35,566 nucleotides of DNA from Methylococcales bacterium. GTDB taxonomy: Bacteria; Pseudomonadota; Gammaproteobacteria; Methylococcales; Methylomonadaceae. This document shows positions 1 to 35,566 of this stretch, piece by piece. Below the pieces are notes generated by a model that was not told where the DNA came from, did not search any database, and worked only from the letters and a program-made list of their open reading frames with translations. The number at the start of each line of letters is the position of its first letter. Position 1 is the first letter of the stretch. Made by a program: the position numbers and the translations under genes. The stretch spans positions 1 through 35,566 of the forward strand of contig QVQD01000072.1 of assembly GCA_003584875.1 (NCBI GenBank). The letters run 5' to 3'.

Positions 1-25
1 AGAACGATAACATTGTGGTGAAGAT

Positions 26-111
26 CGTAGGGGCGTATTGCATACGCCCTTATAAAATAAGCTCTATAACATTGGACTTTCAATGTTGGGCGTATGCAAT
101 ACGCCCCTACG
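26..111. repeat. GTAG-type palindromic pair (REPIN-like), family A
   Basis: Two 24-nt arms (26-49 and 88-111) are perfect inverted copies of each other, separated by 38 nt. Each arm begins with GTAG (27-30; CTAC at 107-110 on the other side) and is itself a hairpin with GGGCGTA pairing to TACGCCC. A GTAG tetranucleotide followed by a hairpin, in inverted pairs, is the known layout of REP elements recognised by RAYT transposases. A decayed relative lies at 33655-33710. Confidence 0.8.
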
Positions 112-152
112 GTGTTTTTTATCGTTTCCACGCCGATAAGAAACTTGTGTAG

Positions 153-449
153 ATACCTACTAAAACAATTGGTCACTTCGGTCTTAACTTGCTTACGCCT
201 GCTGATAAGCTTGCCTTTCTTGCTTCCATTGCTCGTGATAAAAATACTCGTGCTTTGCGTCCATTCTTTGATGACGTGGTTAGGGATTACCCGGAGACTG
301 GACAAGATGAGTTTATGCAGACGGAGGAAGTATTTGCGAAAGTTGCCGAAGAGCAACCAACAGCTTTAATGGAATGGTTAGATAGGCAGCTATTAAAATT
401 AAGCATTAACATTGTCAATATTCCATTTCAGGGTCATAGGTTGTGCTGA
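153..449 (+). pseudogene. possible gene remnant, no ATG start
   Basis: One open frame runs from just after a stop at 150-152 to TGA at 447-449 without an internal ATG near its beginning; the first usable alternative start is a TTG at 189, giving 86 residues. The translated stretch is acidic, soluble-looking and protein-like (for example FFDDVVRDYPETG and EVFAKVAEEQPTALMEW), which is why it is listed. I do not recognise the family. No ribosome binding site is visible, and it sits directly behind a palindromic repeat pair, so it may be the tail of a gene whose 5' part was lost. It could also be a chance open frame. Confidence 0.2.
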
Positions 450-5624: not shown

Positions 5625-5680
5625 GTAACCCGCACAATGGACTATGAATTGTCGGGTTACGCTATCGCTAACCCGACCTA
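5625..5680. repeat. palindromic repeat, family C (partly decayed pair)
   Basis: The well-preserved half contains GTCGGGTTA (5651-5659) and TAACCCGAC (5669-5677) around a 9-nt centre and ends in CTAC. A shortened inverted partner, GTAACCCGCACAAT (5625-5638), pairs with 5648-5660. It is the same family as 12809-12887 and 35389-35462. Confidence 0.65.
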
Positions 5681-5813
5681 CGATGCTTAATCGGCTATCA
5701 GCTAAATTACCTTGTGCTATTGATACTCAAAAGACCGGTTAATGAGGTGTCTATCTAAAGTTAAGTCACTTAAAATTAAATATTTTCTGTATTTATCATC
5801 AATCTCACCTTAC

Positions 5814-9637: not shown

Positions 9638-9698
9638 GGAGTCAAAACTCATGAGTTTTGACTTAAAAAAAGCAACAAAACTCGTGAGTTTTGACTCC
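9638..9698. repeat. GGAG-type palindromic pair, family D
   Basis: Two arms (9638-9662 and 9677-9698) are inverted copies with one mismatch. Each contains AAAACTC pairing with GAGTTTT, and the outer ends read GGAG and CTCC. GGAG is the alternative to GTAG at the head of REP elements. It occupies most of the 107-nt gap between the amidotransferase and glycosyltransferase genes. Confidence 0.75.
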
Positions 9699-12808: not shown

Positions 12809-12887
12809 GTAGGTCGGGTTAGCGATAGCGTAACCCGACATTTAGTAGCTCATTGTCTCGGGTTACGCTATCGCTAACCCGACCTAC
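12809..12887. repeat. GTAG-type palindromic pair, family C (best copy)
   Basis: Arm 1 (12809-12840) starts GTAGGTCGGGTTAGCG; arm 2 (12854-12887) is its inverted copy with a 2-nt insertion and ends in CTAC. Each arm is itself a hairpin (CGGGTTA with TAACCCG). It lies inside the exopolysaccharide gene series, between the deacetylase and the ATPase. Confidence 0.8.
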
Positions 12888-30413: not shown

Positions 30414-30878
30414 CAAAAAAGAACTCAAGGTATTATTTTGAGATCTATGTAATTTGTAAATCATAATAGGATTCGGTCTAATAAAATCGACATAATGACT
30501 GGAACTTGTGCTTATCATTTTATTATCTAAGACCATTAATTAATGAATATCTGATGTTACGCAGCCATTCAGCGGTTTATAAAAAAACAATGAGGTCGCT
30601 ATCGCGACGATTATATTTAATCGGGTAGCGGCAAACGAGACTAAAACGACGTTAATGCGTAACATGAGTTAATATTATATATTATCAAAGTCGCTAAATG
30701 AAAAAGCCAAGTCTAATGCAAGTCTTAATTACAAAGATAATGATCTTGTAGGGGCGACATATTCGCCCGGTACACACAATAATAAATAATGGGCGAATCA
30801 GTCGCCCCTACAATAAAATAATGTATCCACTTCATAGAAGCCCGCAATGACAACCCTCAATCAATCAATTCATCGTAT
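30414..30878. other. gene-free gap between gpsA and the lipocalin gene
   Basis: No credible gene is seen. The gap contains the family B palindromic pair at 30746-30813 and, further left, a separate 10-bp inverted repeat (ATGTTACGCA at 30554-30563 with its inverse at 30656-30665) enclosing about 90 nt that include a short palindrome TCGCTATCGCGA. The latter may be the relic of another mobile element. Confidence 0.4.
30746..30813. repeat. GTAG-type palindromic pair, family B
   Basis: Arms 30746-30768 and 30791-30813 are inverted copies with two mismatches. Each has GTAG at the outer end (30748-30751; CTAC 30808-30811) and a hairpin of GGGCGA with TTCGCCC type. The same family occurs at 35245-35316 and as a half copy at 35470-35490. 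Confidence 0.8.
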
Positions 30879-33654: not shown

Positions 33655-33710
33655 CGTAAGGGCATATTGCACAAGCCCATTTATAAAAGCTTATGCAATA
33701 CTCCCCTAAG
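33655..33710. repeat. decayed family A palindromic pair
   Basis: CGTAAGGGCATATTGC (from 33655) and TTATGCAATACTCCCCTAAG (to 33710) face each other and match the arms of the repeat at 26-111 with several substitutions and a shorter centre, which keeps the same TTATAAAA motif. It is in the 243-nt gap between the ompA-like gene and the histidine kinase gene, where nothing else is seen. Confidence 0.55.
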
Positions 33711-35190: not shown

Positions 35191-35222
35191 TGTGTCGGTT
35201 TACACTACGCTAACCCGACTAC
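35191..35222. repeat. half copy of family C palindrome
   Basis: TGTCGGTTTACACTACGC followed by TAACCCGACTAC. It is nearly the same as 35436-35462 and ends in CTAC. Only one arm is present. Confidence 0.5.
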
Positions 35223-35244
35223 TTAACTGCGCAAAGTTGAGCAT

Positions 35245-35316
35245 TTGTAGGGGCGACAGATTCGCCCTGTATCTTGGAACATCGGATTACTTGGGCGAAT
35301 GAATTCGCCCCTACAA
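35245..35316. repeat. GTAG-type palindromic pair, family B
   Basis: Arms 35245-35267 and 35293-35316 are inverted copies with a small indel at the hairpin tip; outer ends are GTAG (35247-35250) and CTAC (35311-35314). It is the same family as 30746-30813. Confidence 0.75.
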
Positions 35317-35566
35317 CTGAAACTTTTTTTCTTACCTTTAACTCTGGGCAGTGATGCTTAGCGTCACAGACCAAAGTCAAGCTTTTATGTAGGTCGGGTT
35401 AGCGTTAGCGTAACCCGACATTTTGTCGATTATCTTGTCGGAATACACTACGCTAACCCGACCGTTACTGGGCGAATCTGTCGCCCCTACAACTGAAACT
35501 TTTTTTCTTACCTTTAACTCTGGGCAGTGACGCTTAGCGTCACAGACCAAAGTCAAGCTTTTATGT
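35305..35566. repeat. direct repeat with 176-bp period, running off the window
   Basis: 35305-35390 and 35481-35566 (86 nt each) are identical except at 35355 (T) versus 35531 (C). The unit starts in the half-palindrome TCGCCCCTAC and includes a small hairpin GTGACGC-TTA-GCGTCAC; the one difference is a G-T versus G-C pair in that stem. The second copy ends at the window edge exactly where the first copy is followed by a family C palindrome, so a longer tandem array is likely. Confidence 0.8.
35389..35462. repeat. GTAG-type palindromic pair, family C (one arm decayed)
   Basis: Arm 1 (35389-35420) starts GTAGGTCGGGTTAGCG and is nearly the same as the arm at 12809. Arm 2 (35436-35462) is a decayed inverse that has lost the CTAC end. 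It lies between the two copies of the 86-nt direct repeat. Confidence 0.7.

What the first reader, a model, noticed from the sequence alone, without database searches (positions are those of the whole stretch)
26..111. Four different palindrome families all begin with GTAG or GGAG: candidate REP/REPIN elements
Family A (26-111, decayed copy 33655-33710), B (30746-30813, 35245-35316, half at 35470-35490), C (5625-5680, 12809-12887, 35191-35222, 35389-35462) and D (9638-9698) have unrelated stems. Yet the well-preserved copies start with GTAG (D: GGAG), continue into a hairpin, and face an inverted copy. That is the established layout of REP sequences moved by RAYT (TnpA-REP, Y1 HUH) transposases. 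Finding four stem types in 35 kb suggests several RAYT lineages acting in one genome. No RAYT gene is in the window, so action in trans is inferred.
Basis: partly seen in the sequence, partly recalled or inferred. Interest (0 to 1): 0.6.

Follow-up and report, generated by a model that had tools for sequence, protein, structure and literature searches.

The report
Four hairpin-repeat families with matching transposases
The window's small DNA hairpins are four families of high-copy repeats, each with its own transposase gene elsewhere in this probable methane-eating bacterium, and one family together with its enzyme lineage uses GGAG as its start tag instead of the usual GTAG.

Summary
In detail: all four palindrome families are at the stated coordinates and have over a hundred strand hits each in the 3.03 Mb genome (probably Methylococcales). 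Seven REP-associated transposase (RAYT) genes were found; each window family has its own: A = C127, B = C207, C = C163, D = C63. The other three lie beside hairpin types not found in the window.

Corrections. A and B share the foot GTAGGGGCG...CGCCC. The A RAYT scores below the NCBIfam cut-off and carries its own REP in its reading frame, a feature already published (subclass 2.4).

New part: family D. Its RAYT belongs to a clade of 51 loci read in this order. At 47 of 51 the flanking hairpins carry GGAG, with stems that change with the enzyme. The GTAG-contact positions differ in nearly all members (Q95 to W, one residue lost, H101 to Y). The surveys read define REPs by GTAG and close variants. 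I propose a tag switch: a new variant of a known kind. Activity is not shown.

The parts
27..110 (+). Family A REPIN: GTAGGGGCGTATTGCATACGCCC, 38 nt, inverted copy
   Evidence: RAYT in C127
1..161 (+). Part of a ~201-bp TIR element (MITE) around the A REPIN; left end lies beyond the contig start; right TIR at 145-161
   Evidence: copies of 80-99% identity over 125-161 nt in other own-genome loci; TIR match with 2 mismatches at 145-161
33655..33710 (-). Decayed family A REPIN; its flank also resembles that of the copy at 27-110
   Evidence: (I1, I11); no TIR match within 4 mismatches there
30748..30811 (+). Family B REPIN: GTAGGGGCGACATATTCGCCC and inverted copy
   Evidence: RAYT in C207
35247..35314 (+). 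Family B REPIN
35470..35490 (-). Family B half element, in the second unit of a 176-bp tandem repeat cut by the contig end
   Evidence: D1, D19; contig end
5625..5681 (-). Family C element: full REP 5651-5681 plus decayed partner
   Evidence: RAYT in C163
12809..12887 (+). Family C REPIN, 79 bp, no target duplication of 4 nt or more
35194..35222 (-). Family C single REP
35389..35462 (+). Family C REPIN
9638..9698 (+). Family D REPIN with GGAG heads: GGAGTCAAAACTCATGAGTTTTGACT and inverted copy
   Evidence: RAYT in C63; GGAG clade

Best explanation
The palindromes are REP/REPIN elements. Each family is the substrate of its own RAYT (TnpA-REP, Y1 HUH nuclease), encoded elsewhere in the same genome and acting in trans: the enzyme reads a tetranucleotide tag plus a hairpin in single-stranded DNA, cuts near it and rejoins the strand, so copies spread. 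Family D belongs to a separate RAYT clade that reads a GGAG tag in place of GT[AG]G, with matching changes in the protein's tag-contact motif. Family A has a subclass-2.4-like RAYT that carries an A REP in its own reading frame; many A REPINs in this genome have also been spread as the core of a ~201-bp TIR element, presumably moved by an unrelated DDE transposase. Shown: the sequences, copy numbers, gene-repeat pairing, the GGAG clade, motif changes, TIRs and target duplications. Inferred: enzyme activity, the tag switch as functional recognition, and which mechanism made each copy.
For: Seven RAYT genes in one genome; the four that match window families each lie beside that family's palindrome. 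High copy number of every family with controls of 0 or 1. Of 61 genomes, the 5 in which an A-type RAYT (E below 1e-117) was found have 276, 270, 36, 36 and 17 A hits; two others have 8 and 4 and 54 have none (Fisher p = 3.5e-6). D clade: 47 of 51 loci have GGAG at flanking hairpins, 132 of 167 hairpins against ~12.6 expected from base content; GTAG at 2 hairpins, GTGG at 5. Of 19 other RAYT loci, 1 has GGAG. The D rows are one side of a branch (SH-aLRT 99) and the head changes once on the tree. At E. coli numbering D has W at 95 in 48 of 49 rows, a one-residue deletion in 49 of 49 and Y at 101 in 49 of 49; 40 other RAYTs have Q95 in 40 and H101 in 39. D stems follow RAYT divergence: Mantel r 0.51, 0 of 2000 permutations. 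The stem ACAAACCTAGG (3 or more hits) is in 10 of 10 genomes whose D RAYT is flanked by that stem or a 1-2 base variant, in 6 of 32 with another D stem and in 25 of 269 others.
Against: No activity is shown. The GGAG head and the motif change each occur once on the tree, so their link rests on one shared event. 25 of 269 genomes without a near full-length D RAYT still hold 3 or more hits of one D stem; in genus g24 all 8 genomes hold 30-90 although only one has such a gene, flanked by another stem, and one has fragments. Three D-RAYT genomes with another flanking stem hold 20-54 hits. The A-RAYT association is imperfect evidence: one of the five genes has an in-frame stop, sampled 301 of the order's 311 genomes without listing all of them, and 31 of 50 A instances lie near the TIR motif, so A copy number is not RAYT work alone. 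The A protein misses the NCBIfam cut-off and Pfam. No empty-site comparison was made for the window copies.
Confidence: 0.82

Rival explanations
1. The palindromes are MITEs moved by DDE transposases, with TIRs and target duplications, and the RAYT neighbourhoods are incidental.
For: For family A: 10 distinct TIR elements in held own-genome DNA, 9 of them with A REPs, 144-202 bp, ends CATAGGTATCTACACAA; 3 of 10 with a perfect 9-bp duplication (shuffled partners, 8 of 9 or better: mean 0.30, maximum 2).
Against: The A palindromes are the core, not the ends. C REPINs show no duplication: 0 of 13 at 4-9 nt, 1 of 13 at 3 nt against 0.47 expected. Only 4 of 69 C and 7 of 92 D instances lie within 150 nt of the TIR motif; 10 of 39 B do. 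The RAYT pairing holds for all four families.
Confidence: 0.1
2. The hairpins act mainly as RNA or DNA signals (terminators, mRNA 3' ends, supercoiling sites), kept by selection; the spread is old and RAYTs are relics.
For: Window copies lie outside closed ORFs of 100 aa or more; such roles are hypothesised for other REPs (abstract of PMC3733652).
Against: Species-specific stems, many exact copies and open RAYT frames point to recent spread. The roles are compatible with mobility rather than exclusive.
Confidence: 0.15
3. GGAG in family D is a decayed GTAG and the D RAYT recognises the stem alone.
For: In Stenotrophomonas, binding tolerates tag mutations (passage of PMC8266576).
Against: GGAG is at 47 of 51 loci with many different stems, so it is held while stems change. 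In own-genome loci, anchoring on the stem-loop alone, GGAG precedes it in 50 of 78 strand readings, the next commonest being three at 4 each; each palindrome is read from both sides. It comes with fixed changes at tag-contact positions.
Confidence: 0.12
4. Local tandem duplication and gene conversion, not transposition, made most copies.
For: Tandem arrays: 176-bp unit in the window; 141, 155 and 156-bp spacings elsewhere; a block of D REPs beside the D RAYT that is absent in the sister genome G019.
Against: Copies are dispersed over many contigs and the C REPINs have unrelated flanks.
Confidence: 0.1

Closest known systems
REPIN/RAYT (REPtron) systems of Pseudomonas, Stenotrophomonas and E. 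coli (PMC2817692 passages; PMC3733652 sections; PMC8266576 sections and passages)
   Same: Tag plus hairpin, inverted pairs, high copy number, own RAYT beside the same repeat, several families in one genome
   Different: Family D uses GGAG; many family A copies ride in a TIR element; host is probably a methanotroph
TnpA-REP subclass 2.4 (PMC6006769, sections 12, 13, 15 part 1)
   Same: NHIH, WQ and Y---NP motifs and a REP inserted in frame between HuH and Y, as in the A RAYT
   Different: Nothing in kind; in some genomes examined here the internal stem is also the abundant stem, in others not
TnpA-REP subclass 2.8 (PMC6006769, section 26 and Table 1)
   Same: HYH in the HuH motif, as in the D RAYT; W not followed by Q
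   Different: 2.8 is described with GT[AG]G repeats, W[YH] and YIHYNP; D has GGAG, WW and YL-xNP; no 2.8 sequence could be compared
Anabaena GTAG-15 dimers inside long palindromes (PMC3733652, section 7)
   Same: REP dimer inside an outer inverted repeat, as for family A
   Different: Here the outer element has 9-bp target duplications in 3 of 10 copies

Membership tests
REP/REPIN | GT[AG]G tag at the foot of a hairpin, families A, B, C | tested here: met
   Anchored on the stem-loop alone, GTAG precedes it in 36 of 38 (A), 35 of 41 (B) and 49 of 64 (C) readings in held own-genome loci; those loci were chosen by patterns that include the tag
REP/REPIN | GT[AG]G tag, family D | tested here: not met
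   GGAG in 50 of 78 strand readings; 48 of 49 copies carrying either GGAG or GTAG have GGAG; 47 of 51 D-clade loci. Works like a REP but fails this feature
REP/REPIN | High copy and dispersed | tested here: met
REP/REPIN | Extragenic | tested here: inconclusive
   Window copies only: outside closed ORFs of 100 aa or more, but open-ended frames overlap the two contig ends; not tested genome-wide
REP/REPIN | Facing inverted pairs | tested here: inconclusive
   20 of 37 A, 28 of 51 C, 17 of 49 D, 6 of 36 B
REP/REPIN | RAYT gene in the genome beside the same repeat | tested here: met
   4 of 4 window families; on both sides for C and D, upstream for B, upstream and internal for A
REP/REPIN | No target duplication | tested here: inconclusive
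   C: 0 of 13 at 4-9 nt; the TIR elements that carry A show 9-bp duplications in 3 of 10; B and D not tested
REP/REPIN | Cleavage and movement by the RAYT | not testable with these tools
   needs biochemistry
RAYT (TnpA-REP) | NCBIfam NF047646 over cut-off (80 bits) | tested here: met
   6 of 7 own proteins, B, C, D among them, 103.8-211.7 bits
RAYT (TnpA-REP), A protein | NCBIfam NF047646 over cut-off (80 bits) | tested here: not met
   60.6 bits, E 1.5e-16, matched in two stretches; HUH (NHIH) and Y---NP motifs are present
TnpA-REP subclass 2.4 (A RAYT) | REP inserted in frame between HuH and Y | tested here: met
TnpA-REP subclass 2.8 (D RAYT) | GT[AG]G repeats, W[YH], YIHYNP | tested here: not met
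   GGAG, WW, YL-xNP; HYH is shared
DDE MITE (carrier of family A) | Terminal inverted repeats and target duplication | tested here: met
   the transposase was not looked for

The most novel reading that the evidence does not exclude
Family D marks an undescribed REP/RAYT lineage whose recognition tag switched from GT[AG]G to GGAG together with a rebuilt tag-contact motif (WQ.....EH region to WW-N-[YF]-W-D-Y-C), and which then diversified its stems while holding the new tag. It was read in 42 genomes of this order and would be invisible to surveys that require GTAG or GTGG and a G+C-rich stem foot.
Probability: 0.6. Interest if true: 0.6.

Novelty: new variant of a known kind. Interest (0 to 1): 0.5.

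Why it matters
For the E. coli enzyme no substitution of the GTAG tag is tolerated (PMC8266576, section 24). A natural clade with a different, fixed tag and a matching set of protein changes gives a direct way to find which residues read the tag and whether the tag sets the cleavage site. It also suggests that REP surveys keyed on GT[AG]G miss a lineage. The A-family result shows one genome in which a REPIN population is carried partly by an unrelated TIR element, a caution for using REPIN counts as a measure of RAYT activity.

Tried and rejected
Pfam Y1_Tnp alone missed the A RAYT: one search gave six genes, the seventh came from the protein search, so further distant genes may exist.

I first took the REP inside the A RAYT gene as new. 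Of 28 linkers that could be cut out of 30 loci (L179 and L190 did not parse), 25 hold a GTAG-type palindrome by my reading (not L181, L186, L196); the 30 are the best-scoring loci and include groups of close relatives. PMC6006769 describes this very feature for subclass 2.4, so it is not claimed as new. Whether the internal stem is the host's abundant stem was looked at in 50 genomes with two patterns: yes in G169, G158, G001; few hits genome-wide in G099 (4), G233 (3), G287 (6), G185 (7); G244 has another abundant type. Of 20 genomes without a match at the limit, 15 have no hit, but G031 has 17, G016 10, G025 6. Inside the A gene, 7 of 7 degenerate codons within the REP are identical in four genomes against 105 of 139 outside; too few to claim selection.

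Faulty scripts: one search counted few A REPINs and none (its search span was too short); one search replaces them. One search kept only copies headed GTAG or GGAG, so its head conservation is by construction; one search repeats it without that condition.

Of the places, 51 near full-length D loci were read (three with in-frame stops, one cut by a contig end); nine fragments of 53-69% identity were not. Of 34 more distant places 19 were read.

No structure prediction was sent, because the D loci came from tools outside that tool's stated list. Plasmid search for the D RAYT gave 1 record, 29% identity. Literature searches for a GGAG-headed REP: (no relevant paper); on neighbouring questions. 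PMC3733652 reports tag variants GYAG, GYRG, GTRG, GTMG, not GGAG. Subscription papers (for example Bertels 2017, recalled only) are not held.

Full report
Setting. The window is positions 1-35566 of contig 11, which ends there, in a 3.03 Mb, 240-contig genome, 97.55% complete. Relatives found with one of its proteins are titled uncultured Methylococcaceae and Crenothrix polyspora MAGs, so it is probably a methanotroph of the order Methylococcales (inference); the genome itself is unnamed.

Observation. Strand hits in the genome: A 246+248 (<=3 mismatches), B 78+59 (<=1), C 130+140 (<=3), D 97+99 (<=3); backward-read controls gave 0 or 1. Palindromic copies can be counted on both strands. Among distinct copies in held own-genome loci a facing inverted partner within 140 nt was found for 20 of 37 A, 6 of 36 B, 28 of 51 C and 17 of 49 D. 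A and B share GTAGGGGCG...CGCCC, so 'unrelated stems' is too strong.

One RAYT per family. Pfam Y1_Tnp gave six genes, all above the NCBIfam cut-off for REP-associated tyrosine transposase. B REPs lie upstream of C207, C REPs on both sides of C163 and D REPs on both sides of C63; a fifth type (GTAGGGTGGATAAGCG) lies on both sides of C76. C144 and C26 have two further GTAG hairpin types beside them (read). None of the last three heads occurs in the window. A protein search showed a seventh gene, C127:552-899; the region holds A REPs at 187-209 (inverted) and 254-276, and another at 664-686 inside the reading frame 318-926. Its protein scores 60.6 bits against the same NCBIfam model, below the cut-off of 80. 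The A-type RAYT (E below 1e-117) was found in 5 genomes, which are the 5 with most A hits (276, 270, 36, 36, 17); of the other 56 genomes two have 8 and 4 hits and 54 none (p = 3.5e-6). One of the five genes has an in-frame stop, and sampled 301 of 311 genomes without listing all.

The REP inside the A RAYT. The four relatives with this gene have the same internal REP. In the 301-genome search 58 genomes have this RAYT type at E <= 1e-15; of 28 linkers read from 30 loci, 25 hold a GTAG-type palindrome by my reading, with different stems. In some genomes it is an abundant stem, for instance G169 (GTAGAGAC...GTCTC, 122+122), G158 (21+14) and G001 (20+16); in others not (G099, G233, G244). This habit is published for subclass 2.4 (PMC6006769; sections 12, 13 and part of 15 read), so the A RAYT is a known kind.

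A rides in a TIR element. A copies share flanks with each other over about 160 nt. In held own-genome DNA 10 distinct elements have ends CATAGGTATCTACACAA...TTGTGTAGATACCTATG (up to 4 mismatches per end), 9 of them with A REPs: seven are 200-202 bp, two are 144-145 bp with a single palindrome in place of the pair; one of 154 bp has no A REP. Three of 10 have perfect 9-bp duplications (shuffled mean 0.30, maximum 2). Of 50 distinct A instances, 31 have the TIR within 150 nt, against 10 of 39 B, 4 of 69 C and 7 of 92 D. These loci are the first listed hits, not a random sample. C REPINs show no duplication of 4-9 nt (0 of 13); B and D were not tested. A comparable nesting is published for Anabaena GTAG-15 dimers (PMC3733652 section 7).

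Family D. The D RAYT aligns to E. coli TnpA-REP (4er8, E 8.7e-14) but lacks Q95 and H101, two of the positions that PMC6006769 lists as GTAG contacts. A search of 311 genomes of the order gave 51 near full-length loci of 50% identity or more in 42 genomes, all read, and 34 more distant places, of which 19 at 25-36% were read. Hairpins within 300 nt carry GGAG at 47 of the 51 D loci (132 of 167 hairpins; ~12.6 expected from base content); GTAG is at 2 hairpins, GTGG at 5. The four without are L204 (contig end, no hairpin), L246 (frame cut by a stop), L249 (decayed) and L227. Of the 19 other loci, 11 have hairpins, 7 loci with GTAG and 1 with GGAG. In a quick tree of 89 RAYTs (two truncated D rows left out; the program warns of long branches that meet) the 49 D rows are one side of a branch (SH-aLRT 99), with one head change over the rows that I labelled. 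In those 49 rows position 95 is W in 48, position 96 is missing in 49, 101 is Y in 49; in the 40 others 95 is Q in 40 and 101 is H in 39. Stems vary with the enzyme (47 loci; Mantel r 0.51, 0 of 2000 permutations; r 0.41 for pairs over 0.15 distance). The stem ACAAACCTAGG (<=2 mismatches, 3 or more hits) is in 10 of 10 genomes whose RAYT is flanked by that stem or a 1-2 base variant, 6 of 32 with another D stem, 25 of 269 without a near full-length D RAYT. The last figure shows that repeats outlive or outrun the gene, or that some genes were missed; genus g24 is the clearest case.

What is known. The surveys read here define REPs by GTAG/GTGG and a G+C-rich foot (PMC6006769 section 38) or by GTAG with variants GYAG, GYRG, GTRG, GTMG (PMC3733652 section 5). 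A GGAG tag with AT-rich stems would escape the first filter. I found no paper on a GGAG-headed REP in the held library; most subscription journals are not held. In the IS608-type guide model, CT cleavage is set by A3 and G4 of the tag (PMC8266576 section 20), which GGAG keeps; that is a prediction, not a result.

Verdict.

Noticed in passing
window 1-161; L064, L103, L108, L118, L121: A ~201-bp TIR element (CATAGGTATCTACACAA ends, perfect 9-bp duplications in 3 of 10) carries the A REPIN; its transposase was not sought.
   Followed up: partly
L031, L064, L112, L114, L121 right flanks: Five of the 14 elements listed end directly at a B-type REP (CTTGTAGGGGCG... or a decayed form), suggesting that the TIR element inserts into B REP heads, as some insertion sequences target REPs.
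   Followed up: no
L031 1354-1497, L119 1449-1593, compared with 201-bp copies: Shorter TIR elements in which the REPIN has collapsed to one double-foot palindrome, the deletion route suggested in PMC6006769.
   Followed up: no
window 35191-35566: A 176-bp tandem repeat with B and C REPs runs into the contig end; arrays with 141, 155 and 156-bp spacing occur elsewhere.
   Followed up: no
L098 15457-15709 against G019: Block of about five extra D REPs (some at 54-bp spacing) beside the D RAYT, absent at the same place in the sister genome.
   Followed up: partly
L099, L100, L102 (C76, C144, C26): Three more RAYTs with other GTAG hairpins beside them; their heads were not found in the window.
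   Followed up: partly
genus g24 genomes: All eight genomes hold 30-90 hits of a GGAG stem though only one has a near full-length D RAYT and one has fragments: orphan population or missed genes.
   Followed up: no
window 30455-30836: The intergenic stretch around the B REPIN resembles a block repeated within contig 39 (overlapping loci L026-L028, 76-84% identity).
   Followed up: no
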